In this document: positions 1-21,547 of the stretch, piece after piece
Layout of the letters: each line of letters begins with the position of its first letter
How positions within the stretch are numbered: the stretch's first letter is position 1
DNA from: Prevotella sp. CAG:1058
Lineage (GTDB): Bacteria; Bacteroidota; Bacteroidia; Bacteroidales; Bacteroidaceae
Direction: 5' to 3'
NCBI GenBank assembly: GCA_000433175.1
Contig: HF986692.1
Span: 1-64,000 of the forward strand
DNA length: 64,000 nt
The notes under the pieces: generated by a model
What the model saw: the letters and a program-made list of their open reading frames with translations, nothing else
Told to the model about the DNA's origin: nothing
Database searches by the model: none
Position numbers and translations under genes: made by a program

Positions 1-1089
1 TGGCAGCTGCCATACGTTGCCGAGGACGCCGAACAGATAGACGAGGCGCGCAAGAACCATTATATATGCACCCTGACGAAGCAACAGGAGGGCGAAGGCT
101 CTAACTTCTCGGCGCTCGACTACGCCGGAACGATAGACTTCACAGACCCTGCCGCCACCGAGTGGTACAAGGGTCTGCTGCGCCGTCTGCTAAAGATGGG
201 CGTGGCGGCGATAAAGACCGACTTCGGCGAAAACATTCACATGGACGCCGTGTACAAGAACATGAAGCCCGAACTGCTCAACAACCTATACGCCATACTT
301 TACCAGAAGGCGGCATACGAGGTAACAAAGGAAGTGACGGGCGACGGCATCATATGGGCAAGGGCTGCCTGGGCAGGATGCCAGCGCTACCCCCTGCACT
401 GGGGAGGCGACTCGTGCAGCTCGTGGGACGGCATGGCAGGCTCGCTCAAGGGCGGACTGCACTTCGGCCTGTCGGGCTTCGCCTTCTGGAGCCACGACGT
501 GCCCGGATTCCACACCCTACCCAACTTCATGAACTCGCCAGTAAGCGACGACGTGTACGTTCGCTGGACACAGTTCGGCGTGTTCTCATCGCACATCCGC
601 TACCACGGCACCAGCAAGCGCGAGCCTTGGCACTACCCGGCCATCGCACCGATAGTGAAGAGGTGGTGGCAGCTGCGCTACAAGCTCATTCCATACATCC
701 TGCAGGAGAGCCGGAAGGCCGTAAACAGCGGCTCTACGATACTCCAGGCGCTGATATTCCACCACGCCGACGACCCCATGTGCTGGCACATCGACGACGA
801 ATACTACTTCGGCGACGACTTCCTCGTGGCTCCCGTTATGAACAGCGAAGGCCGCCGCAGCGTCTACCTGCCTGAAGGCAACTGGACAGACTTCTTCACC
901 GGCAGGCACTACGAAGGTGGCAAGTGGCTCAAGGACATAGACGTGCCGCTCGAACTGATGCCCGTCTACGTGCGCGAAGGCGCCGTGATACCGGTTTATC
1001 CCGAACCCGTGGACTGCACGGACGACATGGACTTGAGCAAGACGGAATACATTAAGATTGACGGAAACTTCAAGGGCATCGAGTGGTAA
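1..1089 (+). CDS. GH31 alpha-glycosidase (alpha-xylosidase-like), 5' end missing
   Basis: C-terminal 362 codons of a glycoside hydrolase family 31 enzyme; the reading frame is open at the left edge. The family nucleophile motif KTDFGE is present (Asp codon 220-222), as is the acid/base region WGGDSCSSW (Asp codon 409-411), followed by FWSHDVPGFH and a C-terminal beta-domain. Known GH31 members release alpha-linked xylose, glucose or related sugars from non-reducing ends. The D-x-GE nucleophile context resembles YicI-type alpha-xylosidases, but the substrate cannot be fixed. The signal peptide region is outside the window. The gene ends 79 bp before the corrinoid methyltransferase and the symporter follows on the same strand, so the three are probably one transcription unit. 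Family assignment is firm; substrate is open. Confidence 0.93.
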   Translation, partial: WQLPYVAEDAEQIDEARKNHYICTLTKQQEGEGSNFSALDYAGTIDFTDPAATEWYKGLLRRLLKMGVAAIKTDFGENIHMDAVYKNMKPELLNNLYAILYQKAAYEVTKEVTGDGIIWARAAWAGCQRYPLHWGGDSCSSWDGMAGSLKGGLHFGLSGFAFWSHDVPGFHTLPNFMNSPVSDDVYVRWTQFGVFSSHIRYHGTSKREPWHYPAIAPIVKRWWQLRYKLIPYILQESRKAVNSGSTILQALIFHHADDPMCWHIDDEYYFGDDFLVAPVMNSEGRRSVYLPEGNWTDFFTGRHYEGGKWLKDIDVPLELMPVYVREGAVIPVYPEPVDCTDDMDLSKTEYIKIDGNFKGIEW

Positions 1090-1168: not shown

Positions 1169-4100
1169 ATGTGGAAAAAGAATCTTGAAGAGACAAAACA
1201 ACGATACATACAGTGGTGGAACCACAAGGGCATAGTGCTGAACATGTGGGAACACTTCCAGGAAGGCGTCGCTCCGCACGCCGACGTGCCCATGCCTAAG
1301 GCGCCGAAGGACCTCAACCAGAAGTGGTTCGACCCGGAATGGCGCGCCGAATACCTCGACTGGTACGTGGCTCACAGCTGTCTGAAGGCCGACATGCTGC
1401 CCGTTGCAAACACGCAGCTTGGCCCCGGCTCGCTCGCCGCCATCCTCGGAGGCGTGTTCGAGGGTGGAGAGGACACCATATGGATACACCCCGACCCCGA
1501 TTTCAAGGACGAGATAAAGTTCAACCCTGAACACCCCAACTACCTGCTGCACAAGAAACTGCTGACCGAATGCAAGAAGAAGGCCAACGGCAACTACTAC
1601 GTGGGCATGCCCGATCTGATGGAAGGCATGGACGTACTGGCCGCGCTGAAGGGGACGGACAAGGTGCTCATGGACACGGTGACGCAGCCCGAGGTGCTTG
1701 AACGCCAGATGCAGCAGATAAACGACATATACTTCAAGGTGTTCGACGAGCTTTACGACATAGTACGCGAGGGCGACGAGATGGCCTTCTGCTACTTCTC
1801 GTCGTGGGCACCGGGCAAGATGAGCAAGCTGCAGAGCGACATATCGACCATGATAAGCGTGGACGACTACCGCCGCTTCGTGCAGCCCTTCATACGCCAG
1901 CAGTGCCAGAAAATCGACTACACGCTGTACCATCTGGACGGCGTTGGCGCCCTGCACCACCTGCCGGCGCTGCTCGAGATAGAGGAACTGAACGCCATAC
2001 AGTGGACACCGGGCGTGGGAGAACCGCAGGGTGGCTCGCCTAAATGGTACGACCTGTACAAGAAGATACTGGCAGGAGGCAAGAGCATAATGGCATGCTG
2101 GGTTACGCTGGACGAGCTGCGACCGCTGCTCGACAACATCGGAGGCGACGGCGTGCACCTTGAAATGGACTTCCACAACGAGGACGAGGTGGAGAAAGCC
2201 ATGCGCATAGTAGAGGAATACCAGCGCGACGAGGCTGAGAAACCGCGCCAGGAGGACAACACCATACGCATAAGCGACAGTAAGACTGACACTGACAAAG
2301 AAGTAGACGCGATAATAGAAAAGGCAGAACACAGGTTTGAGGAGCTTCAAGGCAACGGCGGAAAAGCTCCTGACGACTATCTTGACGGCTGCCCTATCAA
2401 GGCCGCAGGGCGCAACCGTATTCTCGTTATCGACGGAGCAATGGGCACGATGATACAGAGCCGACGCCTCGGCGAGGCCGACTTCCGCGGCGAAAGGCTT
2501 GCCGCACACCCGGTGAACGTAAGCGGATGCAACGACCTGCTGTGCCTTACGCGCCCCGACGTGATAGAGGACATACACCGCAAGTACCTCGAAACCGGCG
2601 CCGACATAATCGAAACCAACACCTTCAACGCGCAACGCATATCCATGGCGGACTACCGTCTGGAGCACCTCTGCCGCGAGATTAACCTCGAGGCGTGCCG
2701 CATAGCGCGCAAGGTTGCCGACGAATTTACCGCCAAGACACCGCAGAAGCCGCGCTTCGTGGCAGGTTCGATGGGTCCGACGAGCAAGACCTGCTCGGTG
2801 ACATCTGACACCACACAGCCGGGCTGGCACGCCTTCGGCTACGACACGCTGCTCGACGCCTACACCGAACAGGCAGAGGCGCTGATTGACGGCGGCGTTG
2901 ACGCACTGCTGATAGAGACCATATTCGACACAAAGAACGCACAGGCGGCCATAGAGGCGGCACGCACGGCACTGCGCAAGAAAGGCAAGCGGCTGCCGCT
3001 GATGCTCAGTTTCACCATCACAACGCCAGACGGACACAACATGCTGGGACAGAGCATAGAGGAATTCCTCGCCTCCGTGGGCGGTAGCGACATCATGTCG
3101 GTGGGCGTGAACTGCTGTTCTGACGTCAACCTGGCTGCCGGCATGCTGGTACGTCTCGGCAAGACGACTCCTTACATGATAAGCCTTTACCCCAACGCCG
3201 GCATGCCCGACGCATCGGGACACTACAGCCACACGCCCGATATGCTGCAACGCGAGCTGTGGCCGCTGATAGAGTGGCACGTGCTCGACATCGTGGGAGG
3301 ATGCTGCGGAACAACCAACGCGCACATAGGGAAGCTCGCCGGAGCCGTAGTTACGGCCGGCGGACTGGCACTTTCGCCACATGCCGCGCAACAGCCTGAT
3401 AATGAAGGCGTTGCAAAAGGTAACCTTTCAGCCCTCAATATGCCGTCTTTCAGCGTGCAAAAGGCGGTCTCTGACAAGGCAAAAGACGGCCTTTCAGAAA
3501 ACCACGGACACAAGCATGCCGCCGAACCGTGCGAATGCTGCGCCCCGAAGGCGGCAAAAGAGCCGTCGGCGGCCGACGGAGTGTTTGACGCAATACTCGA
3601 AGGCAAGGCCGACAAGGCCGTCGAAGCCACCCGCAAGGCGCTCGACGCAGGCACAGCCCCGCAGGACATCATCAACGGACAGATGATACGCGCCATGGGC
3701 GAGGTGGGCCAGCGCTTCCAGGACGGCAAGGCATTCGTGCCCCAGCTGCTCATGGCGGGACGCGCCATGAAGGCAGCGCTCGAACTGCTCAAGCCCATGC
3801 TGGCCGGCAGCGCGTCGGCGACGATAGGCCGCGTGGTCATAGGTACGGTGAAGGGCGACCTGCACGACATAGGCAAGAACCTCGTGGCGTCGATGCTCGA
3901 GGGCAGCGGCTTCGAGGTGGAGAACATCGGAATAGACGTGCCGTCGGACAAGTTTGTCGAGGCGGTAAGGTCGTGCCACGCCGACATTCTCTGCATGTCG
4001 GCACTGCTTACCACCACTATGACCTACATGAAAGACGTAATCAAGGCCGTGGAGGACGCCGGACTGCGCGACAAGGTGAAGATAATGGTGGGCGGAGCGC

Positions 4101-4225
4101 CCGTAAGCCAGAACTTCGCCGACGAGATAGGCGCCGACGGATACAGCGACAACGCCAACGAGGCGGTGAAGGTGGCGAAGGCATTACTGAAGCCCCTCCC
4201 AACCTCCCCCGTGGGGAGGAGCTGA
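1169..4225 (+). CDS. Fused corrinoid methyltransferase: UroD-like MT + homocysteine S-methyltransferase + B12-binding module
   Basis: 1018 residues. Residues 1 to about 375 form a UroD-fold methyltransferase domain (MtaA/COG0407 type; motif HLDGVGALHHL). Residues about 415-725 form a MetH-type homocysteine S-methyltransferase domain with zinc cysteines C649 (GVNCC), C712 and C713 (GGCCGTT). A linker of about 75 residues follows, then a B12-binding cap (from about 800) and a Rossmann B12 domain with the DxHxxG motif (GDLHDIG, cobalt-ligand His899). No pterin-binding or reactivation domain lies between or after these. The start at 1169 is chosen because WKKNLEETKQRY opens the domain; an upstream in-frame ATG at 1058 overlaps GH31. 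Part of the linker (3411-3498) is encoded by a dispersed 4 x 22-nt repeat, and the last residues (PLPTSPVGRS) by an arm of an inverted repeat. Methyl transfer from an unknown donor through cobalamin to homocysteine is the expected chemistry; the donor is inference. Confidence 0.9.
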   Translation: MWKKNLEETKQRYIQWWNHKGIVLNMWEHFQEGVAPHADVPMPKAPKDLNQKWFDPEWRAEYLDWYVAHSCLKADMLPVANTQLGPGSLAAILGGVFEGGEDTIWIHPDPDFKDEIKFNPEHPNYLLHKKLLTECKKKANGNYYVGMPDLMEGMDVLAALKGTDKVLMDTVTQPEVLERQMQQINDIYFKVFDELYDIVREGDEMAFCYFSSWAPGKMSKLQSDISTMISVDDYRRFVQPFIRQQCQKIDYTLYHLDGVGALHHLPALLEIEELNAIQWTPGVGEPQGGSPKWYDLYKKILAGGKSIMACWVTLDELRPLLDNIGGDGVHLEMDFHNEDEVEKAMRIVEEYQRDEAEKPRQEDNTIRISDSKTDTDKEVDAIIEKAEHRFEELQGNGGKAPDDYLDGCPIKAAGRNRILVIDGAMGTMIQSRRLGEADFRGERLAAHPVNVSGCNDLLCLTRPDVIEDIHRKYLETGADIIETNTFNAQRISMADYRLEHLCREINLEACRIARKVADEFTAKTPQKPRFVAGSMGPTSKTCSVTSDTTQPGWHAFGYDTLLDAYTEQAEALIDGGVDALLIETIFDTKNAQAAIEAARTALRKKGKRLPLMLSFTITTPDGHNMLGQSIEEFLASVGGSDIMSVGVNCCSDVNLAAGMLVRLGKTTPYMISLYPNAGMPDASGHYSHTPDMLQRELWPLIEWHVLDIVGGCCGTTNAHIGKLAGAVVTAGGLALSPHAAQQPDNEGVAKGNLSALNMPSFSVQKAVSDKAKDGLSENHGHKHAAEPCECCAPKAAKEPSAADGVFDAILEGKADKAVEATRKALDAGTAPQDIINGQMIRAMGEVGQRFQDGKAFVPQLLMAGRAMKAALELLKPMLAGSASATIGRVVIGTVKGDLHDIGKNLVASMLEGSGFEVENIGIDVPSDKFVEAVRSCHADILCMSALLTTTMTYMKDVIKAVEDAGLRDKVKIMVGGAPVSQNFADEIGADGYSDNANEAVKVAKALLKPLPTSPVGRS
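3411..3498. repeat. 4 x 22-nt palindromic repeat element, copy A (inside coding sequence)
   Basis: Four consecutive 22-nt units (3411-3432, 3433-3454, 3455-3476, 3477-3498), each a variant of a palindrome TGCAAAAGG....CCTTTTGCA. This copy lies within the corrinoid methyltransferase gene and is translated as part of the linker between the homocysteine and B12 domains. The other six copies in the window are intergenic. Confidence 0.85.
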
Positions 4226-4321: not shown

Positions 4322-5926
4322 ATGACTACACAATCATTACAAGCACTCGACTGGGGCATCCTTGCCGCCTATTTCATCATCCTGCTCGGCATCGGCATAT
4401 GGGCAAGCAGGAAGAGCAAGGAAGGTAGTAGCAAATTCCTGGCCGGCAACTCGCTGCGCTGGCACCACATAGGCTTCTCCATGTGGGGCACCAACGTGGG
4501 CCCGTCGATGCTCATCGCGTCGGCAAGCGCAGGCTTCACCACAGGCATCGTGTCGGGCAACTACGCCTGGTACGCCTTCGTCTTCATAGCCCTGCTGGCC
4601 TTCGTCTTCGCCCCGCGCTACCTGGGCAGCAAGGTGTCGACGCTGCCCGAGTTCATGGGACTGCGCTTCGGACAGTCGACACGCAACATGCTGGCGTGGT
4701 ACACCATAGTGACGATACTCATTTCGTGGCTCGCGCTGACGCTCTTCGCCGGCGGCATCATCATCCGCCAGGTGTTCGGCATGCCCATGTGGATGTCGGC
4801 ATTCCTGCTGCTGGCCATATCGGCATTCTTCACCATGCTCGGCGGACTCAAGGCCGTGGCCTACACCAACGTGTACCAGATGGTGCTGCTCATACTCGTA
4901 TCGGCCACGCTTACCTTCGTGGGCATCTACCGCCTGGGCGGCGACTCGTTCACGGGAGGCGTCTCCGTGCTGGCAAACCCCGACATCGTGCCGTCAAACT
5001 ACTGGAACCTGTTCCAGCCTAACACGGACAAGGACTTCCCCTGGCTGCCCATACTGCTGGGCTACCCCATATCGGGCCTGTGGTTCTGGTGCACCGACCA
5101 GTCTATGGTGCAGCCCGTGCTGGCCGCCAAGGACCTGAGCGAGGGACAGCGCGGAGCCAACTTCACGGGCTGGCTCAAGATACTCGACGTGGCCATCTAC
5201 ATCATTCCGGGCATTGTCTGCTTCGCCCTCGCCAAGACGGGATTCTTCGGCGGCATGACCATCGAGGCCGACAACGCATACATGACGCTCGTGTCGAGCC
5301 TCTTCCCCGTGGGCATGGTGGGCCTCGTATTGGCCGTGCTGACCGCTGCGCTGATAAGCACCATAGGCTCGGCGCTCAACGCCCTTAGCACCGTTTTCAC
5401 CATGGACATATACGTTAAAAACATACGTCCGCAGGCGACCGAGGCCGAAATCTCGCGCACCGGGCGCATAGTGACCATCGTAGGCGCGCTGGTGTCGATA
5501 GTGATAACCGTCGCCGTGGACAACATAAAGGGCATGAACCTCTTCAACGTGTTCCAGTCCGTGCTCAGCTTCATAGCCCCGCCAATGGCGGCGGTGTTCG
5601 TCATGGGCGTGTTCTGGAAGCGCTGCACCACCCTGGCGGCCAACATTACGCTTACCTTCGGCACGATATTCAGCATCGGCACGGGCATTCTCTACCTGTG
5701 GGTTATACCCGGAGCCGCCGAGCAGGTACACTTCATGATGCTGTCGTTCCTCATCTTCGTGGCGCTCGTCATCGAGATGGTGATAGTCAGCCTGAGCAAC
5801 AAGGCAGCCACGGAAAGCACAAGGGTGGTCAAACTCGACGAGAAACCGAAGCGCAGCGTGGTGGTAAGCTGGGTGCTGCTGGCCGTGGTGATGATTGCGC
5901 TTTACATATTCTTCAACGGCAACTGA
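4322..5926 (+). CDS. Sodium:solute symporter (SSS family, SGLT-like)
   Basis: 534 residues with about 14 hydrophobic segments starting at residue 11 (WGILAAYFIILLGIGIWA). The N-terminal SSS signature is clear (FLAGNSLRWHHIGFSMWGTN, a Na+-site region), as is GGLKAVAYTNVYQ in the middle. These inner-membrane proteins bring sugars, amino acids or other small solutes in with Na+. The closest recognisable type is the sugar-transporting SGLT/vSGLT branch, but the substrate is not readable from sequence. It is 96 bp downstream of the corrinoid methyltransferase and followed by a terminator, so it probably closes the GH31-methyltransferase operon and may import the sugar released by the glycosidase. 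Confidence 0.92.
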   Translation: MTTQSLQALDWGILAAYFIILLGIGIWASRKSKEGSSKFLAGNSLRWHHIGFSMWGTNVGPSMLIASASAGFTTGIVSGNYAWYAFVFIALLAFVFAPRYLGSKVSTLPEFMGLRFGQSTRNMLAWYTIVTILISWLALTLFAGGIIIRQVFGMPMWMSAFLLLAISAFFTMLGGLKAVAYTNVYQMVLLILVSATLTFVGIYRLGGDSFTGGVSVLANPDIVPSNYWNLFQPNTDKDFPWLPILLGYPISGLWFWCTDQSMVQPVLAAKDLSEGQRGANFTGWLKILDVAIYIIPGIVCFALAKTGFFGGMTIEADNAYMTLVSSLFPVGMVGLVLAVLTAALISTIGSALNALSTVFTMDIYVKNIRPQATEAEISRTGRIVTIVGALVSIVITVAVDNIKGMNLFNVFQSVLSFIAPPMAAVFVMGVFWKRCTTLAANITLTFGTIFSIGTGILYLWVIPGAAEQVHFMMLSFLIFVALVIEMVIVSLSNKAATESTRVVKLDEKPKRSVVVSWVLLAVVMIALYIFFNGN

Positions 5927-6119: not shown

Positions 6120-7259
6120 ATGAAACACAAAACTCTTATTCTTGCAATGTTCGGGGCTCTCATGGCGGCATCGTGCCACTCCGGACACGACCATGAAGCG
6201 GAAGCCGAAGCGCACGAGGAAAAGGCGCACGAGCATGCCGGCGAAATAGTGATAAGCAGCGAAAAGGCCAAAGCCTCGGGCATAGTGGCCGAGACGGTGG
6301 CGGCAGGCGAGTTCTGCGGTGTAATACCGGCAGGCGGCAAGATACTGGCCGCATCGGGCGACGAGGCAACAGTAGTGGCTACCGTACCCGGCGTGGTGAA
6401 GTTCACGCGCGGACTGACCGAAGGTTCGCCCGTAGGCCGCGGTGCCACGGTGTTCACCATATCGTCGAAGAACCTTCAAGACGACCCCGCACGGCAGGCG
6501 GCCATTGCCTACCGCAAGGCTAAGAGCGAATACGAGCGCGCAGCCAAGCTGGTAAAGGACAGGATAGTAACCCAGAGGGAGTTCAACACGATAAAGTCTG
6601 ACTACGAGTCGGCAAAGATAGCCTACGAGGCATACTCCGGCGGCGGCAAGAGCGGCGGCGGAGTGGCCGTAACGTCGCCCATCGGCGGATACGTGAAGAC
6701 ATGCCTTGTCAAGGAAGGCGACTACGTGGCCGTAGGCCAGCCCATGCTGACCGTCACGCAGACACGCAGCCTGTACCTAAAGGCCAACGTGCCAGAACGT
6801 TACTATCCGCTGCTGGGCACCATAAGTTCGGCCAAGTTCAAGACCGCACACGGCGACCGTGTGTACGACCTTAGGCACATGAACGGACGGCTCGTGGCCA
6901 CGGGCAAGTCGACAGGCGACGGTTCGCCCTACATACCCGTAACCTTCGAGTTCGCCAACCGCGCCGAAGTGATGCCCGGCTCGTTCGTCGAGACATACCT
7001 GCTCACCTCGCCCCGCCAGGGCGTCGTCAGCGTTCCGGTGTCTGCATTGACCGACGAACAGGGCGTAAACTACGTCTATGTGCAGACCGACGCCACGTGT
7101 TATGAGAAACGCGAGGTGCACATCGGCGAGACCGACGGCGAGCGCGTTGAGATTAAACACGGACTGAAAGGCGGCGAAAAGGTAGTAACCAAGGGCGCCA
7201 TGCAGGTAAGGCTGGCATCCGCATCGACAGCCATACCGGCACATTCGCACAACCATTAA
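6120..7259 (+). CDS. RND efflux periplasmic adaptor, lipoprotein, His-rich N-terminus (CusB/CzcB-like)
   Basis: 379 residues. The lipoprotein signal ends at MAASC (Cys19), followed at once by a His/Glu/Asp-rich stretch (HSGHDHEAEAEAHEEKAHEH) that looks like a metal-binding tail. The rest has the membrane-fusion-protein order: beta-barrel/lipoyl half (from about residue 65), a coiled-coil hairpin (about 115-160), a second lipoyl half (VTSPIGGYVKTCLVKEGDYV) and a barrel domain to the C-terminus, which ends in HSHNH. It would join the inner-membrane pump to the outer-membrane channel encoded downstream. The His tails suggest a divalent cation (Cu, Zn, Co or Ni); which one cannot be told. It is the first gene of a three-gene operon. 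Confidence 0.9.
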   Translation: MKHKTLILAMFGALMAASCHSGHDHEAEAEAHEEKAHEHAGEIVISSEKAKASGIVAETVAAGEFCGVIPAGGKILAASGDEATVVATVPGVVKFTRGLTEGSPVGRGATVFTISSKNLQDDPARQAAIAYRKAKSEYERAAKLVKDRIVTQREFNTIKSDYESAKIAYEAYSGGGKSGGGVAVTSPIGGYVKTCLVKEGDYVAVGQPMLTVTQTRSLYLKANVPERYYPLLGTISSAKFKTAHGDRVYDLRHMNGRLVATGKSTGDGSPYIPVTFEFANRAEVMPGSFVETYLLTSPRQGVVSVPVSALTDEQGVNYVYVQTDATCYEKREVHIGETDGERVEIKHGLKGGEKVVTKGAMQVRLASASTAIPAHSHNH

Positions 7260-7316
7260 TACGGCACAGGCATGCATACGCAGGCATGGCGCCTAACACT
7301 GTAAACACTCGAAACA

Positions 7317-10300
7317 ATGCTTAACAAGATAATTCATTTCTCATTGCACAACCGCCTGCTCATCCTCGTGGCGGCTGTGCTGCTCACCGTGGGCGGAATA
7401 TACATCACGGGGCAGACCGAAGTCGACGTCTTCCCCGACCTCAACGCGCCAACGGTGGTAGTAATGACCGAAGCCAACGGCATGGCGGCAGAAGAAGTGG
7501 AGCAGCTCGTGACGTTCCCCATAGAGACGGCTGTCAACGGCGCCACACACGTACGCCGCGTACGCTCGTCGTCGGCGACGGGTTTCTCGGTGGTGTGGGT
7601 CGAGTTCGACTGGGACACTGACATCTACCTGGCGCGCCAGATAGTGTCGGAGAAGCTCGCGGCGGTGACCGAGACGCTTCCCGAGAACGTGGGCAAGCCT
7701 ACACTGGGCCCGCAGTCGTCGATACTCGGAGAAGTACTCATCGTCGGACTTACGGCCGACAGCACCTCGATGATGGACCTGCGCACCCTGGCCGACTGGA
7801 CCATACGCCCCAGGCTTATGTCAACGGGCGGCGTGTCGCAGGTGGCCGTGCTCGGCGGCGACATCAAGGAATACCAGATACTGCTGCATCCGGGACGCAT
7901 GGCGCACTACGGAGTGACGCTGGGCGAGGTCATGGCTGTCACCGACCAGATGAACCGCAACACCAACGGAGGCGTAATCTACGAGTACGGCAACGAATAC
8001 ATTGTGCGCGGAGTGGTGTCGACCACCGAGGTGGAGAAGATGGCCGACGCCGTAGTCAAGAGCGTTAACGGCGACGCAGTGACGCTGGGCGACGTGGCCG
8101 ACGTGCAGGTTGGCAGCCAGGTGCCGCGCCTCGGACTGGCGTCGGAAAAGGGCAAGCCGGCCGTCCTGCTGACGGTGACCAAGCAGCCCGACACCGGCAC
8201 CATCGAACTTACCGAACGGTTGGAGGCCGCACTCAAGGACTTGAAGAAGAACATGCCTGCCGACGTGCATGTGTCGACCGACATTTTCCGCCAGTCGCGC
8301 TTCATTGAAAGCTCGGTGAAGAACGTCGAACACTCGCTCTACGAAGGCGCGATATTCGTCGTAATAGTGCTGTTCCTCTTCCTAGCAAACGTCCGCACCA
8401 CTGTAATATCGCTAATCACGCTGCCCATCTCGCTGCTCATCTCGCTCATAGTGCTTAACTATTTCGGCATGAGCGTCAACACGATGAGCCTCGGCGGACT
8501 GGCAATCGCAATCGGTTCGCTGGTCGACGACGCGATAGTAGACGTGGAGAACGTATGGAAACACTTGCGCGAGAACCGCGCACTGCCCAAGGACGAGCGC
8601 CTGCCCATGCTCGACGTGGTGTTCAATGCGTCGCGCGAGGTGCGCATGCCGATACTCAACTCCACGGCGATAATCATCGTCAGCTTCATTCCCCTGTTTT
8701 ATCTCAGCGGCATGGAAGGCCGCATGCTCATACCGCTCGGCGTGGCATTCATCGTCGCCCTGGTAGCTTCGACCATCGTTGCGCTGACGCTCACGCCCGT
8801 ACTTTGCAGCTACCTGCTCGGCGGCAAGCATGAAGACAAGGTGCCGAAGGAAGCCTTCGTGGCCGCATGGCTAAAGAAACACTATGAGCGTTGGCTCGTG
8901 TGGGCGCTCGACCACAAGCGTCCCGTGGTGCTGACGACGGCCGCGCTGTTCGTAGCCGCACTCGGACTGTTCTTCACCTTGGGGCACAGCTTCCTGCCTA
9001 AGTTCAACGAAGGCTCGTTCACAATCAACATAAGCTCCATGCCGGGCATATCGCTCGAGGAGTCTGACCGCATCGGACGGCGCGCCGAAGAAATCCTCCT
9101 GTCGATTCCCGAAATACAGACCGTGGCCCGAAAGACCGGCCGCGCCGAGCTCGACGAGCACGCCCTGGGCGTTAACGTGTCGGAAATAGAGGCGCCGTTC
9201 GAGCTGAAAGACCGCTCGCACGAGGAGCTTCTTGACGACGTGCGCCACAAACTCTCCGTAATATCTGGCGCCAACATCGAGATAGGCCAGCCCATAAGCC
9301 ACCGCATCGACGCAATGCTGAGCGGCACGCAGGCCGGCATCGCCATCAAGCTCTTCGGCGACGACCTCAACAAGATGTTCGAGCTGGGCAACCAGATAAA
9401 GGACGCCATAGCCGACGTGGACGGCATTGCAGACCTCAACGTGGAGCAGCAGGTGGAGCGTCCGGAGCTTGAAATCAAGCCGAAACGCGAGATGCTGAAG
9501 ATGTACGGCATACCGTTGGCCGACTTCAACACGTTCGTCCGCGTCAACATGGCAGGCGAAACGGTGTCGCAGGTGTACGAGAAGGGCGGCAGCTTCAACC
9601 TCGTGGTGCGTGCTGCAGAGCACGACCGCTGCGACATGGAGCGCATTCGCGACCTCATGATAGACACTCCCGACGGACGGAAGATACCGCTTGCCAACGT
9701 GGCCGAGGTGACTTCGGCAATGGGACCGAACACCATCAACCGCGAGAACGTTAAGCGCAAGATAGTAATCTCTGCCAACGCGAGCGGCAGGGACATGCGA
9801 AGCGTAGTCAACGACATACAAAAGCGTGTAGCCGAGAAGGTCGAAATGCCCGAAGGTTACCACGTGGAATACGGCGGACAGTTCGAGAGCGAGCAGTCGG
9901 CCAGCCGCACACTGACGCTCGCCTCGGTGCTGAGCATCATCGTAATCTTCCTCCTTCTCTACATGCAGTTCAAGAACGCGCTCGAAAGCGCGGTAATACT
10001 CATCAACCTGCCGCTGGCACTTATCGGCGGCGTGTTCACCCTCGTATGCACCACGGGCGAAATAAGCATTCCTGCGATAATAGGCTTCATCTCGCTGTTC
10101 GGCATCGCCACGCGCAACGGCATGCTGCTGATAAACCGCTACAACATGCTGCGCGGCGAAAAGGAAACGCCGCTCCGCGAGTGCATCGTACACGGTTCGC
10201 TCGACCGTCTTAACCCCATCCTCATGACGGCCCTTTGCTCGGCGCTCGCCCTTATACCGCTGGCGCTGCGCGGAAGCCTGCCAGGCAACGAGATACAAAG

Positions 10301-10409
10301 CCCCATGGCGAAGGTCATCCTGGGCGGTCTGCTCACGTCGACGTTCCTCAACGGTTTCATTATCCCTATCGTCTACGAGTGGATGAACAAGAAGAAAATA
10401 GTGAAATAG
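7317..10409 (+). CDS. Heavy-metal RND efflux pump, CusA/CzcA family
   Basis: 1030 residues, the usual length of HME-type RND transporters. The N-terminal helix, porter domains and twelve membrane segments are visible: a first bundle after about residue 340 (FVVIVLFLFLANVRTTVISL) and a second after about 860. The fourth membrane segment carries the acidic proton-relay motif (GSLVDDAIVDVEN), and TRNGMLLINRYN marks the second half. The family exports Cu+, Ag+, Zn2+, Co2+ or Ni2+ from periplasm or cytoplasm using proton motive force. It sits 57 bp after the adaptor and 20 bp before the outer-membrane factor. Confidence 0.94.
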   Translation: MLNKIIHFSLHNRLLILVAAVLLTVGGIYITGQTEVDVFPDLNAPTVVVMTEANGMAAEEVEQLVTFPIETAVNGATHVRRVRSSSATGFSVVWVEFDWDTDIYLARQIVSEKLAAVTETLPENVGKPTLGPQSSILGEVLIVGLTADSTSMMDLRTLADWTIRPRLMSTGGVSQVAVLGGDIKEYQILLHPGRMAHYGVTLGEVMAVTDQMNRNTNGGVIYEYGNEYIVRGVVSTTEVEKMADAVVKSVNGDAVTLGDVADVQVGSQVPRLGLASEKGKPAVLLTVTKQPDTGTIELTERLEAALKDLKKNMPADVHVSTDIFRQSRFIESSVKNVEHSLYEGAIFVVIVLFLFLANVRTTVISLITLPISLLISLIVLNYFGMSVNTMSLGGLAIAIGSLVDDAIVDVENVWKHLRENRALPKDERLPMLDVVFNASREVRMPILNSTAIIIVSFIPLFYLSGMEGRMLIPLGVAFIVALVASTIVALTLTPVLCSYLLGGKHEDKVPKEAFVAAWLKKHYERWLVWALDHKRPVVLTTAALFVAALGLFFTLGHSFLPKFNEGSFTINISSMPGISLEESDRIGRRAEEILLSIPEIQTVARKTGRAELDEHALGVNVSEIEAPFELKDRSHEELLDDVRHKLSVISGANIEIGQPISHRIDAMLSGTQAGIAIKLFGDDLNKMFELGNQIKDAIADVDGIADLNVEQQVERPELEIKPKREMLKMYGIPLADFNTFVRVNMAGETVSQVYEKGGSFNLVVRAAEHDRCDMERIRDLMIDTPDGRKIPLANVAEVTSAMGPNTINRENVKRKIVISANASGRDMRSVVNDIQKRVAEKVEMPEGYHVEYGGQFESEQSASRTLTLASVLSIIVIFLLLYMQFKNALESAVILINLPLALIGGVFTLVCTTGEISIPAIIGFISLFGIATRNGMLLINRYNMLRGEKETPLRECIVHGSLDRLNPILMTALCSALALIPLALRGSLPGNEIQSPMAKVILGGLLTSTFLNGFIIPIVYEWMNKKKIVK

Positions 10410-10429
10410 ACATTAAAGCACAAGGCAAG

Positions 10430-11599
10430 ATGAAATCAACCATAATGACAATAGCCGCCCTCGCCCTCGCGGCAAGCGTGCAGGCGCAGACCATAGGCGA
10501 CGTACTGAAGAGCGTGGAACAGAACAACATGGAGCTGCAGGCAATGCTGAAAGGCAACGAGGCGGCCGACCTGGAGACGCGCAGGGAGAACTACCTGGAA
10601 GACCCTTCGATGGAATACAGCCCGTTTTTCAACAATGACGCAAGGGGAATGGCAAGCTCGGAGCTTGTAGTCAAGCAGGGTTTCGACTTCCCCACCCTGT
10701 ACGGGGCGCGTAGCAAGGCTGCGAAACTGCAGAGCGGAGTGCGCGAACTGGAGTACCGCACGGCACGCCGCGACCTGCTGCTGCAGGCCAAAAACATCTG
10801 CCTCGACCTTGTACACCTTGACAAGCAGAAGGCGATACTGGCCGAGCGGCGCAAGAACGCCGACGAACTGTTGGCAATGTTCACCGAGAAATACGACAAC
10901 GGCGACGCCACTTCGCTCGAACTGAACAAGATAAAAATGGAGCGCATGAACCTTGCAACGGAGCTTACGCAGGCCGAGACGGCGCGCGCCGAGGCGCTGA
11001 GCCAGCTATGCGCGCTCAACGGCGGCAAGCCCATAGACCTCGGCACGGCCGAATATCCCGCCCTGCCCGACGCCGGCACGGCAGCCCTGTACGAGCAGGC
11101 GGTAAGCTCGGACGTTACGGTCATGGCGGCGCAGGCATCAGTCAAGGCAGCCGAACAGGACATAAAGGTGAACAAACAGAGCTGGATACCTAAACTGGAG
11201 GTGGGCTACCGCCGCAACACCGACGGCCGCGACGCGAGCAACGGCTTCCTCATAGGCGGCTCGATACCCCTGTTCTCAAGCAAGAACAAGGTGAAGACGG
11301 CCAAGGCGCGGCACACCGAGGCGCGCATGAGGCAGACCGAGGCGGCGATAAAGGCCGAAAGCTCGGCTCGTGCGCTGATAGACAAGATGGACCGCCTCGA
11401 CGCCGTCATGAAGGCCTACGACGTGCCGTTGATGCGCCAGACGCTGTCGCTGCTGCGCACGGCGGTAGAGAACGGCCAGATATCGGTGACCGACTACTAC
11501 GTGGAGGCGGACAACGTGTACCGCAACCTGCTTGCCTACATGGACGTGGAGAGGCAGTACCACGGCGTGGTGGCAGACATAACGAAAAACGGGCTGTAA
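10430..11599 (+). CDS. TolC-family outer-membrane efflux protein
   Basis: 389 residues with a signal peptide ending AASVQAQ, then two repeats of long helices broken by beta strands (for example VVKQGFDFPTLYGARS and GFLIGGSIPLFSSKNKVKTA), as in the outer-membrane factor family. It is shorter than classical TolC. The start at 10430 gives a proper signal peptide; an upstream in-frame ATG inside the pump gene is rejected. It completes the tripartite metal pump. A shared terminator follows. Confidence 0.88.
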   Translation: MKSTIMTIAALALAASVQAQTIGDVLKSVEQNNMELQAMLKGNEAADLETRRENYLEDPSMEYSPFFNNDARGMASSELVVKQGFDFPTLYGARSKAAKLQSGVRELEYRTARRDLLLQAKNICLDLVHLDKQKAILAERRKNADELLAMFTEKYDNGDATSLELNKIKMERMNLATELTQAETARAEALSQLCALNGGKPIDLGTAEYPALPDAGTAALYEQAVSSDVTVMAAQASVKAAEQDIKVNKQSWIPKLEVGYRRNTDGRDASNGFLIGGSIPLFSSKNKVKTAKARHTEARMRQTEAAIKAESSARALIDKMDRLDAVMKAYDVPLMRQTLSLLRTAVENGQISVTDYYVEADNVYRNLLAYMDVERQYHGVVADITKNGL

Positions 11600-12191: not shown

Positions 12192-12875
12192 TCACTTGCG
12201 GCGGCGCTTGTAGCAGTCCTTATAGTCGCATAGGCCGCACGAATACTCAAGTTTCCTTACCCCTTCACCAATGCCTATCACGCCGCTCACCGACTTGATG
12301 GGCAGCATCAGGCTCGAGTCTGTAAGGCTGACGCCGCACGGGCGCTCGATGCCGAACAGCGGAAAGAGCTTCTGCTGCTCAGACACGTGCCAGCCGCAGT
12401 AGCCCGGGCTGAAGCGGTTGGTGTGCAGCCATCCGCGCGTGCCTATCTCATGCTGCAGCGCCTGCTCCATGCAGTCGGCCGTGCGCTCGGCTATCACCGA
12501 ACCGAACGAGTCGGCAATGAACGTGCGCACCATGTCGTCATCGTCCTTCAGGCGCATCTGGTAGTCCTCGAACTCGACGCCTGCCGTGGCCACGAAGAAG
12601 GCGAAAGCCTGCGAGCCGCGCAGCTGGCGGCTTATGATGCGCCCCACGTGCATGCACGTAGCGCCCACGGTCAGCGTGTTTGCCGCGGTGTCAAGCTCGC
12701 CCTTTGCCACGAAGAAGCAGTAGCGCGGGCGCAGCAGGGCGCTTATCTGGCGCTCCACGGCAGCCACCTCGTCCTTAACGTCGTCGCCGGGCTCGGCACC
12801 GCCGTAGCCCATCTGTTCGTAGACCTCGCCCAACGGCAGGGCGAGGTCGCCGTATGTCAATTCGTCGAAAGTCAT
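12192..12875 (-). CDS. Stand-alone MetH-type cobalamin reactivation (activation-domain) protein
   Basis: 227 residues. The segment NRFSPGYCGWHVSEQQKLF matches the AdoMet-binding motif of the C-terminal activation domain of cobalamin-dependent methionine synthase (R.SPGY...P....Q), followed by GVSLTDSSLMLPIKSVSGV, also conserved there. The protein ends in a Cys cluster (CGLCDYKDCYKRRRK). Such domains re-methylate Co(II) cobalamin with AdoMet and an electron donor. A separate activation protein is known beside MetH in Thermotoga maritima (TM0269). Here it could serve the fused methyltransferase at 1169-4225, which lacks this domain. The gene lies 32 bp after the UroD-like methyltransferase gene in the same operon. 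Confidence 0.85.
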   Translation of the reverse strand: MTFDELTYGDLALPLGEVYEQMGYGGAEPGDDVKDEVAAVERQISALLRPRYCFFVAKGELDTAANTLTVGATCMHVGRIISRQLRGSQAFAFFVATAGVEFEDYQMRLKDDDDMVRTFIADSFGSVIAERTADCMEQALQHEIGTRGWLHTNRFSPGYCGWHVSEQQKLFPLFGIERPCGVSLTDSSLMLPIKSVSGVIGIGEGVRKLEYSCGLCDYKDCYKRRRK

Positions 12876-18423: not shown

Positions 18424-18478
18424 ATCAAAAAACTTGCAGAAATCATCTGCCATACAAAACAATTCTATGAAAAATGTT

Positions 18479-18486
18479 TAAATTTG
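18479..18486 (+). promoter_or_regulatory. Promoter -7 box of the hybrid two-component gene
   Basis: TAAATTTG matches TAnnTTTG. It overlaps the first codons of the longest possible reading frame (ATG at 18474), which argues that translation really starts at 18507. Confidence 0.5.
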
Positions 18487-18506
18487 CCGTAAAATACCAA
18501 AAAGCC

Positions 18507-21272
18507 ATGAAATCAATACCCACCGCAACACTCTTGCTGCTAATGCTTTTGCTGGTAGGTTGCCAAAACGAACATAAATACAAGATTGGAGTGTCGCAAT
18601 GCTCGCAGGACGATTGGCGCATGAAACTCAATGACGAAATTATGCGCGAGGCATTGCTGCACGACAGTATTGAAGTCGAGATACGCTCGGCGGATGACGA
18701 CAACGGGAAGCAAAAGGCCGATTTAAGATACTTCGTACAGAACGGATTTGATATAATCATAGCCGCCCCAAATGAAGTGGAAACCATTACACCTCTTTTG
18801 GACAGCATCTATTTATCGGGCACACCGGTCATACTCTTCGACCGACGCACCAACAGCGACCACTACACATCCTTCTTAGGAGCCGACAACAAATTGCTCG
18901 GATGCTCCGCCGCCCAATATATACAGACGCTGAACAAAGCTCCCAAAATACTGGAGCTGATGGGAAAGCTGGAAACGAGTCCCGCACAGGAACGCCACAA
19001 AGGCTTTACTGAAAAGATAAATTCAATGGATAATGCGGTTATCCTTGCATCGGCGGTGGGAGACTGGACCGACGAAGGCGGCCAAAGGGTGACCGACTCC
19101 CTTCTAAGACTCTACCCACAGGCCAATATCATCTACGCCCACAACGACCGGATGGCCATCGGTGCCTCAAAAGCGGCGGAAAGGCTAGGACGGCGGAAAG
19201 ACATAAGCATAATAGGCATCGACGCTTCGCCACAAATCGGACTCAAGGCCGTTCATGATTCGGTGATTGATGCGAGCTTCATCTATCCCACAGATGGACG
19301 TCGGCTTATACAGTCGGCACTTTCCGTACTTAAAGGCGAAAAGCTGGATAAGGACATCGCCCTGCCTGTCGGTGTGGTAGCCAACCAGACTAATGCCGAA
19401 ATAATGCAACTGCAGGACGAAGCCTTGAAAGTAGAGACCAATAACATAAAGGTGCTGAAACAGAAGCTGAACGTCTATTGGGAACGCTACTCTATGCAAA
19501 CGGCTCTTCTTTACGGCATTGTCGTCATACTCGCATTGTCCAGCATATCCCTATTCTTGTTGTTGCGCTGTTGGCGGGCACAGCGACGGCACCGCACCCT
19601 CGCCGAGCAGCAAAACGCAAAGCTGGAAGCGCAACGCGATGAAATAGAACGCCAATATGTGCAGCTGCAACAGAAGAACGACGAGATAAGCCAGATAATG
19701 GAACAGCTGCGGCAGGCCACGCAATCAAAACTAACGTTTTTCACCAATGTCTCCCACGATTTGCGGACACCGCTTACACTGATTGCCGAACCCGTATCGC
19801 AAATGGCCCGTGCGGACAACCTGACCGAGGGGCAACATAAGCTCATGGCTTTGGCGATGAAGAACGTCCGCATCCTGATGCGCCTCATCAACCAGATTCT
19901 CGACTTCAGGAAGTATGAGAATGGAAAACTCGAACTTAATCTCATGGAAGTGGATGTAGCCGCCCAGATGCGGGACTGGACGGAATCTTTTAAGGACATA
20001 GCCTTGCGGCGGCATCTGAAGTTCCAGGTGAAAATTCCCGACGGCGACTACCGCATGGCCATCGACACGGACAAGATGGAGCGTGTGTTGTTCAACCTGA
20101 TTTCAAACGCCTTCAAATTCACACCCGCCGGAGGCACGGTACGCGTAGTACTGTCGCGCGAGGCGGACAATATCCGGCTCACCGTAAGCGATAACGGCAA
20201 AGGCATTCCCGAGAAAAACATCAAGCAGGTGTTTGAACGCTTTTTCAAAGTAGACAAAATCAGCCCGGAAGGTTCAGGCATCGGTCTTGCGCTTTCCAAG
20301 ACCTTCGTCGAGCTGCACGGCGGAAGCATCGAGGTGCAAAGTACGGAAGGGAAAGGCACGGTATTCACGGTCAGTCTGCCCGTACGGCACGTGGACAACG
20401 CTGCCTTGACTGAATCTGTCACGGCAGAACCATCCGCGGCAATCGCAACGGAGCTTGCCGACATCCTGCCACAGGCAGGAGAACCTTCCGAACAGGTTGA
20501 CACCATCCTCGTCATCGATGACAATCCCGACATCTGCGCCCTGGTAGGCACCCTACTGCAAGGGGTCTACACGGTCATTTATGCTTCTAACGGGCTGGAA
20601 GGCATTAAACTCGCCGCCAAGTATGTGCCCGACCTCATCATCTGCGACATCATGATGCCCGGCATTGACGGTCTTGAAACGTGCCGCCGGCTAAAACAAG
20701 AAGTAACCACATCGCACATACCAGTGTTGATGCTGACAGCCTGCGCCATGGATGAACAGCGCATAGCAGGGTATGACTGCGGAGCCGATGCCTATCTCAC
20801 AAAACCCTTCAACGGCGACCTGCTGAAAGCCCGCATAAAGTCGCTGGTGGCCAACCGGAAAAGGCTGAAAGAGCTTTACCTCTCCGGTGCAAGCCAGTCA
20901 GGTCTTGGACAGTCTGCCGCCAAATGGCACGACATGGACCACGACTTCTACGCGCAATTCCTTTCCGTCGTGGAAGAGGAAATCAGCAATTCCGAACTTT
21001 GCATGGACGACATCGCCTCGCGAATGGGTATAAGCCGCGTGCAGCTATACCGCAAAATCAAGGCGCTCACCAACTATTCGCCGACCGACCTCGTGCGCAA
21101 CCTCCGCCTGCAGCAGGCTTCACGCATGCTGAAGTCTTCCGACATGACCATTGCCGAAGTCTGCTATGCCGTGGGGTTCACCTCACATTCCTATTTCACA
21201 AAGTGCTACCGCGAATATTTCGGCGAACTGCCGTCCGAATCGCAAAAGCGTACCTCTAAAATCCATTCCTGA
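18507..21272 (+). CDS. Hybrid two-component system regulator with periplasmic sugar-binding-type sensor
   Basis: 921 residues. An N-terminal signal/anchor with lipobox-like LLVGC precedes a LacI/ribose-binding-type periplasmic domain (about 25-310: YKIGVSQCSQDDWRM, IIAAPNEVE, VILFDRRT, IYAHNDRMAIGA, ISIIGIDASPQIG). A membrane segment follows (about 333-355), then coiled coil, HisKA with His417 (NVSHDLRTPL), HATPase (NLISNAFKFT, DNGKGIP, GSGIGLAL), a receiver with Asp714 (IICDIMMPG) and an AraC-type DNA-binding domain at the C-terminus. This is the Bacteroidota HTCS layout; the sensor resembles the fructose sensor BT1754 type rather than the beta-propeller type. It probably controls the adjacent GH3 gene. 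Codon use is visibly lower in GC than the flanking genes, suggesting separate origin. Confidence 0.93.
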   Translation: MKSIPTATLLLLMLLLVGCQNEHKYKIGVSQCSQDDWRMKLNDEIMREALLHDSIEVEIRSADDDNGKQKADLRYFVQNGFDIIIAAPNEVETITPLLDSIYLSGTPVILFDRRTNSDHYTSFLGADNKLLGCSAAQYIQTLNKAPKILELMGKLETSPAQERHKGFTEKINSMDNAVILASAVGDWTDEGGQRVTDSLLRLYPQANIIYAHNDRMAIGASKAAERLGRRKDISIIGIDASPQIGLKAVHDSVIDASFIYPTDGRRLIQSALSVLKGEKLDKDIALPVGVVANQTNAEIMQLQDEALKVETNNIKVLKQKLNVYWERYSMQTALLYGIVVILALSSISLFLLLRCWRAQRRHRTLAEQQNAKLEAQRDEIERQYVQLQQKNDEISQIMEQLRQATQSKLTFFTNVSHDLRTPLTLIAEPVSQMARADNLTEGQHKLMALAMKNVRILMRLINQILDFRKYENGKLELNLMEVDVAAQMRDWTESFKDIALRRHLKFQVKIPDGDYRMAIDTDKMERVLFNLISNAFKFTPAGGTVRVVLSREADNIRLTVSDNGKGIPEKNIKQVFERFFKVDKISPEGSGIGLALSKTFVELHGGSIEVQSTEGKGTVFTVSLPVRHVDNAALTESVTAEPSAAIATELADILPQAGEPSEQVDTILVIDDNPDICALVGTLLQGVYTVIYASNGLEGIKLAAKYVPDLIICDIMMPGIDGLETCRRLKQEVTTSHIPVLMLTACAMDEQRIAGYDCGADAYLTKPFNGDLLKARIKSLVANRKRLKELYLSGASQSGLGQSAAKWHDMDHDFYAQFLSVVEEEISNSELCMDDIASRMGISRVQLYRKIKALTNYSPTDLVRNLRLQQASRMLKSSDMTIAEVCYAVGFTSHSYFTKCYREYFGELPSESQKRTSKIHS

Positions 21273-21547
21273 CATTCCCCATACGTCCATTCCAAACCCC
21301 ATACATGGCCTGGGACGTGACAGCAAAGTGGCTGTAACTCCGGGAACGAAGGTTGTATTCATTGGTTCACTTGATGTTTAAATCTAATACCAAGTATGAT
21401 AAGAAAGTTCAGCTCATCGATGCTGTTACGACCTGCAAGGGGAGCCAGTAAGCCTGCCAGGCGTACGTTTGGCAAGAAGACCGGCTTTAAGGCAGCGCCA
21501 TTATGAAACTTACACACATACAATTTTCTAATAACTTAAAGAGCTTT
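21273..21547. other. Intergenic region with degenerate short frames
   Basis: 275 bp between regulator and GH3. One frame ends DSKVAVTPGTKVVFIGSLDV at about 21381, and a 36-codon basic frame runs 21396-21506. Both look like remnants of a lost gene, but no family could be named. No clear promoter match was found. Confidence 0.3.

What the first reader, a model, noticed from the sequence alone, without database searches (positions are those of the whole stretch)
1169..4225. Three-domain fusion: UroD-like methyltransferase + homocysteine methyltransferase + corrinoid module, without a folate domain
Seen: one frame encodes a UroD-fold domain, a MetH-type homocysteine domain with zinc Cys649/712/713 and a B12 module with DxHxxG. 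Known: normal MetH carries homocysteine, folate, B12 and activation domains; UroD-fold proteins include methyltransferases that work on methylated donors with corrinoid partners. Here the folate domain is missing and a UroD-like domain sits at the N-terminus. Inference: one polypeptide could take a methyl group from a non-folate donor to cobalamin and then to homocysteine, making methionine. I know of no described enzyme with this order.
Basis: partly seen in the sequence, partly recalled or inferred. Interest (0 to 1): 0.9.

Follow-up and report, generated by a model that had tools for sequence, protein, structure and literature searches.

The report
Predicted folate-free methionine synthase fusion
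A gut Prevotella-type bacterium encodes one protein that looks able to strip a methyl group off a non-folate compound, most likely a methylated plant-cell-wall sugar, pass it over vitamin B12 and put it on homocysteine to make the amino acid methionine, which would link pectin digestion to amino-acid supply.

Summary

The N-domain also occurs unfused; all 11 unfused loci fetched read GH141 (BT_1002 relative), GH31, N-domain, SSS symporter. BT_1002 releases 2-O-methyl-xylose-fucose from rhamnogalacturonan-II, so 2-O-methyl-xylose is my donor guess, an inference.

Of 83 fusion genomes, 17 lack MetF; in all 17 the fusion is the only PF02574 protein. Five of these, two of them isolates, keep MetA and lack MetE. 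The control is imperfect: 5 of 147 fusion-less relatives show the same gaps.

Best reading: a folate-independent, corrinoid-dependent methionine synthase fed by a sugar methyl ether. The chemistry is untested.

The parts
1..1089 (+). GH31 (alpha-xylosidase-like) gene, 5' part cut off by the window start
   Evidence: 89% identical to the GH31 cluster that precedes the fusion in relatives; Pfam Glyco_hydro_31 in 196-1086
1169..4225 (+). three-domain fusion gene, 1018 aa: UroD-fold domain, homocysteine methyltransferase, corrinoid module
1169..2233 (+). N-terminal UroD-fold domain (residues 1-355), candidate donor demethylase; invariant LYHLDG (H255, D257)
2396..3355 (+). homocysteine S-methyltransferase domain (residues 410-729), zinc Cys649, Cys712, Cys713
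3575..4189 (+). corrinoid-binding module (residues 803-1007), DxHDIG at 897-902; closer to stand-alone corrinoid proteins than to MetH
4322..5926 (+). sodium:solute symporter (SSS), recurrent downstream partner
   Evidence: 93% to the recurrent cluster
12192..12875 (-). stand-alone Met_synt_B12 activation-domain protein, 66% to the protein found near the fusion in relatives; candidate reductive activator
   Evidence: PF02965 E 1.3e-14

Best explanation
The protein is a corrinoid-dependent, folate-independent methionine synthase in one chain. The N-terminal UroD-superfamily domain takes a methyl group from an oxygen, most likely of a methyl-ether sugar, to Co(I) of the corrinoid module. The MetH-type zinc domain then transfers it to homocysteine, giving methionine. 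The best candidate donor is 2-O-methyl-D-xylose of rhamnogalacturonan-II (RG-II): a periplasmic GH141 frees a 2-O-methylxylosyl-fucose unit, the SSS transporter imports it, a cytoplasmic GH31 alpha-xylosidase splits it, and the fusion demethylates the xylose. A separate Met_synt_B12 protein probably re-reduces cobalamin. Shown by sequence or model: domains, motifs, fold, gene order, MetF and MetH absences. Inferred: all chemistry, the donor, the cellular locations and the order of steps.
For: Domains and invariant motifs. UroD fold. HxDG in 95 of 95 N-domain rows; Kountz and Balskus (PMC10418091, passages seen) state that UroD-superfamily S-methyltransferases have His-Cys-Cys zinc ligands and that O-methyltransferases have carboxylate or a non-ligand in place of Cys. 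Gene order GH141-GH31-N-SSS in 11 of 11 unfused loci fetched; of 80 fused loci, clusters named from one or two checked representatives each occur as GH31 in 47, activation protein in 46, MtaA-like in 43, GH141 in 43, SSS in 41 (names). Locus GH141 proteins of L091 and L006 match BT_1002 (E 9e-174 and 6e-156) and keep an Asp pair with the spacing of its catalytic pair; BT_1002 releases 2-O-methyl-D-xylose-alpha-1,3-L-fucose (PMC10154630, passage). GH141 N-termini printed look like signal peptides and GH31 N-termini do not (by eye). RG-II-type genes stand near a few fusions: BT_1020-like in 5, GH78 in 8, GH127 in 9, L-fucose isomerase in 6 of 80 loci (names). MetF absent in 17 of 83 fusion genomes, all 17 with the fusion as the only PF02574 protein, about 9 changes on a quick tree. 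Homocysteine domains of 84 fusions and of 20 MetH are parted by a 99% branch.
Against: No biochemistry. 29 of 80 fused loci hold none of GH141, GH31 or SSS in the fetched DNA, some of it short. L103, the nearest relative of the window, has no GH141 in the 6.8 kb fetched upstream of its GH31. 66 of 83 fusion genomes keep MetF and 58 keep a second PF02574 protein, among them the near relative L002 (G002), so the fusion is usually not the only route. MetA+ MetF- without any PF02574 protein also occurs in 5 of 147 fusion-less family genomes, none with MetE, so auxotrophy can look the same. MetF loss and GH31/SSS adjacency are not linked once kinship is allowed for. GH141 also holds a xylanase and endo-fucanases (listing), and the locus GH141 is a paralogue of BT_1002. 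B. theta seems to carry the same GH31 (5f7c), yet is reported to leave one RG-II linkage uncut; if that is the methylxylose linkage, as I recall, this GH31 may not cut it. The third metal ligand is not identified: E332 is S or L in the 4 stand-alone N-proteins.
Confidence: 0.5

Rival explanations
1. Same chemistry (non-folate donor to B12 to homocysteine), but the donor is another compound: methanol from pectin, a methoxylated aromatic, 2-O-methyl-fucose or a methylamine.
For: UroD-superfamily enzymes include aromatic O-demethylases (PMC10418091 passages). Public names for some two-domain forms say di/trimethylamine methyltransferase, and the B. theta homologues are called Mta (PMC8941943 passage). 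29 of 80 fused loci show none of GH141, GH31, SSS.
Against: The N-domain carries HxDG in 95 of 95 rows, not the thiol-type HxCG. In all 11 unfused loci it sits between GH31 and SSS, or its B12 partner and SSS, which points to a glycoside. I saw no amine or aromatic catabolic gene among the neighbour representatives that I identified; many neighbours were not identified.
Confidence: 0.27
2. The protein is chiefly a catabolic demethylase: homocysteine is only a methyl sink, and the MetF- MetH- genomes are methionine auxotrophs or incomplete bins.
For: Unfused forms exist without a homocysteine domain. 66 of 83 fusion genomes keep MetF. 5 of 147 fusion-less genomes have MetA but neither MetF nor a PF02574 protein. 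Many of the 17 are bins; G468 is only 1.4 Mb.
Against: Two of the five genomes with MetA and without MetF, MetE or a second PF02574 protein are named strains, G001 and G003. MetF is absent more often in fusion genomes, 17 of 83 against 10 of 147, p 0.003; the two sets were sampled differently and kinship is not corrected.
Confidence: 0.15
3. The homocysteine domain uses its own classical donor and the UroD-like domain is a regulatory or decarboxylating remnant.
For: Pfam does not score the N-domain as UROD.
Against: N-domain identity to the window stays at 70-95% across the 21 fused and unfused proteins aligned, with 40 invariant H, C, D, E, Y, K or R positions in 95 of 95 rows. The unfused N-domain keeps a corrinoid partner: fused in 7 of 11 loci, next gene in 4 of 11.
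Confidence: 0.05
4. Frameshift or assembly error joined separate genes.
For: None found.
Against: Same frame in 80 of 80 kept genome loci and the same Pfam set in all 120 listed homologues.
Confidence: 0.01

Closest known systems
Cobalamin-dependent methionine synthase MetH
   Same: homocysteine zinc domain (PF02574, GGCC) and B12 module in one chain
   Different: no folate domain, no fused activation domain, extra N-terminal UroD-fold domain; B12 module is closer to stand-alone corrinoid proteins (1y80 E 8.5e-59 against 1bmt E 2e-30); homocysteine domain is parted from 20 MetH domains by a 99% branch
Split methionine synthase / glycine betaine demethylase MtgBCDE of Ruegeria pomeroyi (PMC12478193, abstract and first part of Results read)
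   Same: one corrinoid protein serving demethylation of a methylated compound and methionine synthesis
   Different: separate subunits, MtgD links through tetrahydrofolate, donor is glycine betaine, aerobic bacterium
Core methionine synthases MesA-MesD (PMC7857596, passages read)
   Same: folate-independent methionine synthesis, for MesA-C probably from methyl-corrinoid proteins
   Different: Mes proteins are MetE-related; here the acceptor domain is MetH-type PF02574, fused to corrinoid and donor domains
UroD-superfamily corrinoid methyltransferases (MtaA, MtbA, aromatic O-demethylases; PMC10418091 abstract and passages)
   Same: fold, and position of the HxxG metal motif
   Different: HxDG rather than HxCG; fused in cis to corrinoid and homocysteine domains
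B. thetaiotaomicron 'Mta' genes BT_0340, BT_0342, BT_0343 beside BT_0338 (GH141) and BT_0339 (alpha-xylosidase) (passages)
   Same: gene numbers fit the order GH141, GH31, corrinoid, SSS, activator/MtaA of loci L091 and L092
   Different: taken to be the two-domain corrinoid without a homocysteine domain (inferred; the B. theta genome was not fetched); named as methylamine methyltransferase, no test of function seen

Membership tests
MetH methionine synthase | homocysteine domain with three zinc Cys | tested here: met
   PF02574 E 6.3e-86; C649, C712, C713 invariant in 20 of 20
MetH methionine synthase | folate (pterin-binding) domain | tested here: not met
   no Pfam or NCBIfam match to it; linkers of about 55 and 75 residues
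MetH methionine synthase | C-terminal activation domain in the same chain | tested here: not met
   absent from the fusion; stand-alone homologue at 12192-12875
UroD superfamily | UROD TIM-barrel fold | tested here: met
UroD superfamily | Pfam PF01208 above cut-off | tested here: not met
   no hit at E<=1; linked only through paralogues, one of which just passes the cut-off (24.3 against 23.9 bits)
UroD-type S-methyltransferase (MtaA-like) | His-Cys-Cys zinc site | tested here: not met
   HxDG in 95 of 95 rows
UroD-type O-demethylase | carboxylate in place of a zinc Cys | tested here: met
   D257 invariant; metal binding itself not shown
UroD-type O-demethylase | methyl transfer from an O-methyl substrate to Co(I) | not testable with these tools
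   needs an anoxic assay
Corrinoid MT1 / corrinoid protein / MT2 system | corrinoid protein with DxHxxG | tested here: met
   PF02607 and PF02310; DxHDIGKN in 84 of 84 fusions
Corrinoid MT1 / corrinoid protein / MT2 system | reductive activator of the corrinoid | tested here: inconclusive
   Met_synt_B12-type protein in 46 of 80 fused loci; no RamA/RACE search was made
MesA-D core methionine synthase | MetE C-terminal (PF01717) relative | tested here: not met
   no PF01717 match in the fusion
RG-II utilisation locus | BT_1002-like GH141 with catalytic Asp pair | tested here: inconclusive
   met in L091 and L006; no GH141 lies in the window, and the nearest relative L103 has none in the fetched stretch
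RG-II utilisation locus | induction by or need for RG-II | not tested
   no expression data for this gene were seen

The most novel reading that the evidence does not exclude
Some Prevotellaceae have given up methyl-tetrahydrofolate for methionine synthesis and take the methionine methyl group from the methyl-ether sugars of plant pectin (2-O-methyl-xylose of RG-II) through a single fused demethylase-corrinoid-methionine synthase; dietary pectin would then be an obligate source of one-carbon units for these gut bacteria.
Probability: 0.3. Interest if true: 0.93.

Novelty: new variant of a known kind. Interest (0 to 1): 0.75.

Why it matters
If right, it adds a route to methionine that bypasses folate, explains how gut Bacteroidales dispose of and profit from the methyl groups of RG-II, gives a function to B12-dependent 'Mta' genes of Bacteroides now named after methylamines, and points to a GH31 to test on the RG-II linkage that B. 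theta was reported not to cleave (that one linkage was left: PMC12282258 passage; that it is 2-O-methyl-xylose to fucose is recalled from Ndeh 2017, which was not held). It predicts cultured strains whose methionine prototrophy should depend on a plant sugar and on B12.

Tried and rejected
Assembly error or frameshift: rejected. Hidden folate domain: rejected. Direct Pfam assignment of the N-domain: failed. Profile comparison of the N-domain with the MtaA-like neighbour: no match; it worked only with the closer paralogues. The alignment used for the structure model held 9 distant UroD-type rows among 30, so the model was not blind to that fold; the PDB profile hit to MtaA (E 0.00034) shares that bias. 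Link between MetF loss and GH31/SSS adjacency: raw p 0.004, but nothing in independent pairs, so not used. The N-domain outside the family is rare: 1 of 395 phylum genomes with a full match, plus one weak 47-residue hit. Papers: the rows listed (titles and starts of abstracts; lists were capped) by searches showed no described enzyme with this architecture and no corrinoid sugar demethylase in Bacteroides; searches listed nothing. The library holds only CC0, CC BY and CC BY-SA papers of PubMed Central, and I read only the passages named. P0176 (N-domain joined to a nucleosidase-like domain) is seen on one short contig and was set aside as a likely chimera.
Full report
What is there. The frame 1169-4225(+) is intact, 1018 residues long, and starts where its relatives start. 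Pfam gives S-methyl_trans (E 6.3e-86), B12-binding_2 (6.4e-23) and B12-binding (1.5e-28), and over residues 1-400 only a chance-level hit (LPD7, E 0.63). NCBIfam gives MetH-like scores far under the MetH cut-off (536 against 1011 bits) plus corrinoid-protein matches under their cut-offs. Against solved structures the homocysteine part matches MetH best, while the B12 part matches a stand-alone corrinoid protein (1y80, E 8.5e-59) better than the MetH B12 fragment (1bmt, E 2e-30). So the chain is a chimera of a MetH-type acceptor domain and a methyltransferase-type corrinoid module, behind an N-domain that Pfam does not name.

Distribution. The whole-protein search scored 7993 candidates, of which 7989 passed; all 120 listed carry the same three Pfam domains at 951-1048 residues. 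A scan of one genome per species found 232 relatives of the fused query; the best 80 were kept, and all 80 have the three domains in one frame. In 399 genomes of the GTDB family of Xylanibacter caecicola, 18 have the N-domain: 7 in a chain of about 1000 residues, 7 of about 600 (N plus B12) and 4 alone at 357-383. In 395 genomes of the phylum only one has a full match. On a quick tree of 95 N-domains the stand-alone forms separate on a 100% branch and the two-domain forms fall among the fusions with weak support. Homocysteine domains of 20 MetH proteins are parted from those of 84 fusions by a 99% branch; the solo row of G142 joined among the fusions on a very long branch, which the program flags as doubtful, and the root is unknown. 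This argues against repeated capture of the domain from MetH.

Neighbourhood. Among 80 fused loci, clusters recur as GH31 in 47, activation protein (Met_synt_B12) in 46, MtaA-like URO-D in 43, GH141 in 43 and SSS symporter in 41; GH31 is directly upstream on the same strand in 29 and SSS directly downstream in 26. Names rest on one or two checked representatives per cluster. 51 of 80 hold at least one of GH141, GH31 and SSS; 29 hold none, several on short contigs. The 11 unfused loci fetched are all the unfused N-domain loci, and 11 of 11 have GH141, GH31, the N-domain gene (with its B12 gene where separate) and SSS in a row; in L097 and L101 the GH31 is read as two frames. In the window, GH31 (cut by the edge), fusion and SSS are in this order, and an activation-domain protein lies at 12192-12875(-). 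No GH141 or MtaA-like gene was found in the window. Whether a GH141 lies beyond the edge is unknown: the relative L002 has one, the nearest relative L103 has none in the 6.8 kb fetched upstream of its GH31.

Glycan. The locus GH141 proteins of L091 and L006 match BT_1002 (5mqp) at E 9e-174 and 6e-156. The review PMC10154630 (passage) says BT_1002 releases 2-O-methyl-D-xylose-alpha-1,3-L-fucose from chain A of RG-II, with D523 and D564 as critical residues; in both alignments an Asp pair with the same spacing of 41 is kept, and I take that pair to be the catalytic one. GH141 also holds a xylanase (same passage) and endo-fucanases (PMC12786026, listing). The locus GH31 of L006 is very close to a solved GH31 (5f7c, 1477 bits over 746 residues; that 5f7c is B. 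theta BT_0339 is recalled). The GH141 N-termini printed look like signal peptides while the GH31 starts, such as MKPTNYHLFDFLDFD, do not (judged by eye). A few fused loci also neighbour BT_1020-like (5), GH78 (8), GH127 (9), L-fucose isomerase (6) and aldolase-family (6) genes, of 80 (names). Together this suggests periplasmic release, import by SSS, cytoplasmic cleavage by GH31 and demethylation by the fusion. This chain of steps is inference.

Bacteroides thetaiotaomicron. PMC8264420 calls BT_0338 a GH141, a table in PMC10434189 calls BT0339 an alpha-xylosidase, and PMC8941943 lists BT_0340, BT_0342 and BT_0343 as Mta methylamine/trimethylamine corrinoid methyltransferase proteins, says that B. 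theta has only MetH as methionine synthase, and did not capture the Mta proteins with its B12 probe. The numbering fits the order in L091 and L092. I did not fetch the B. theta genome, so this identity is inferred. If true, these 'Mta' genes are misnamed. It also cuts the other way: B. theta is reported to leave one RG-II linkage uncut (PMC12282258 passage), by recall the one between 2-O-methyl-xylose and fucose, although it seems to carry this GH31.

Methionine genetics. I examined 83 fusion genomes: 35, 47 of the 52 (the other five are unfused), and G155. MTHFR (PF02219) is absent in 17. In all 17 the fusion is the only PF02574 protein; among the 66 with MTHFR, 8 have no second PF02574 protein, two of them with weak or partial MTHFR hits (G035, G434). 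MetE-type PF01717 was checked in all 17: 16 have none, G007 has a 391-residue relative. MetA (PF04204) was checked only in the first 35: 5 of the 6 MTHFR-less genomes there have it, G007 does not. Thus five genomes (G001, G003, G004, G010, G030) have MetA, no MTHFR, no MetE and no PF02574 protein but the fusion. G001 is Marseilla massiliensis An824 and G003 is Xylanibacter caecicola PCHR, records titled as strains; the other three are bins. Of the window's near relatives, G324 (L103) lacks MTHFR and MetH while G002 (L002) has both. MTHFR changes state about 9 times on the tree. Control: of 151 family genomes, 147 lack the fusion; 10 of these lack MTHFR, 8 lack MTHFR and any PF02574 protein, and 5 of those keep MetA, with no MetE in any. 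So the pattern is enriched (17 of 83 against 8 of 147, p 0.0007; MetA+ subset 5 of 35 against 5 of 147, p 0.02) but not exclusive; the two sets were drawn in different ways and kinship is not corrected. Of the two fusion-less MTHFR- genomes that keep a PF02574 protein, G050 has a MetH of 914 residues and G142 has what looks like the split form: N-domain, B12 protein and a separate short PF02574 protein.

Mechanism and confidence. Shown: domain content, motifs, fold, recurrent gene order, MTHFR and MetH absences. Inferred: methyl transfer from donor oxygen to Co(I), then to zinc-bound homocysteine. I give about 0.8 to folate-independent methionine formation, about 0.7 to an O-methyl donor, and less than 0.5 to 2-O-methyl-xylose in particular. 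The MtaA-like neighbour keeps HNCG and SSGC-type motifs (HNCG pattern matched in 24 of 43, the SxGC pattern in 43 of 43; HNCG is invariant in 13 of 13 aligned), so by the same rule it should act on a thiol. It may be a second acceptor enzyme, perhaps the homocysteine or other thiol partner in species with the two-domain form; that is open.

Comparison. It works like MetH without folate, and like the split MtgBCDE system, but it is neither: MetH membership fails on the folate and activation domains, Mes membership on the acceptor fold. I found no published description of this architecture in the searches named under Tried and rejected. I class it as a new variant of a known kind, corrinoid methyltransferase systems, with an unusual in-cis coupling and a plausible new donor.

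Noticed in passing
L108:329-2533, L109:1105-3315, L110:1153-3367: Pairs of UroD-superfamily proteins (about 354 aa with HYCG, 375 aa with HSCG and, in L109, PF01208 E 3.2e-10); in L110 a GH28 polygalacturonase stands beside them. Perhaps further corrinoid methyltransferases of pectin catabolism.
   Followed up: partly
G-handle genomes: Many MetH-type frames in this family are only about 910-950 residues long, which fits a missing fused activation domain; a separate Met_synt_B12 protein may serve both MetH and the fusion.
   Followed up: no
L111:5187-6038, with L098: Genome G142 carries the three functions as separate genes: N-domain and B12 proteins side by side, a short PF02574 protein elsewhere, and no MTHFR.
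   Followed up: partly
window 21503-24151, 26973-29321, 31340-32998, 18474-21272: Two GH3 enzymes, a GH78-type alpha-rhamnosidase and a hybrid two-component regulator further along the window.
   Followed up: no
window 6120-11599: A membrane-fusion protein and an AcrB/D/F-family pump follow the SSS gene, with a third gene that may be their outer-membrane factor (not scanned); not part of the recurrent neighbourhood.
   Followed up: no
P0176: N-domain joined to a PNP_UDP_1 domain on one 3253-base contig; probably a chimera.
   Followed up: partly
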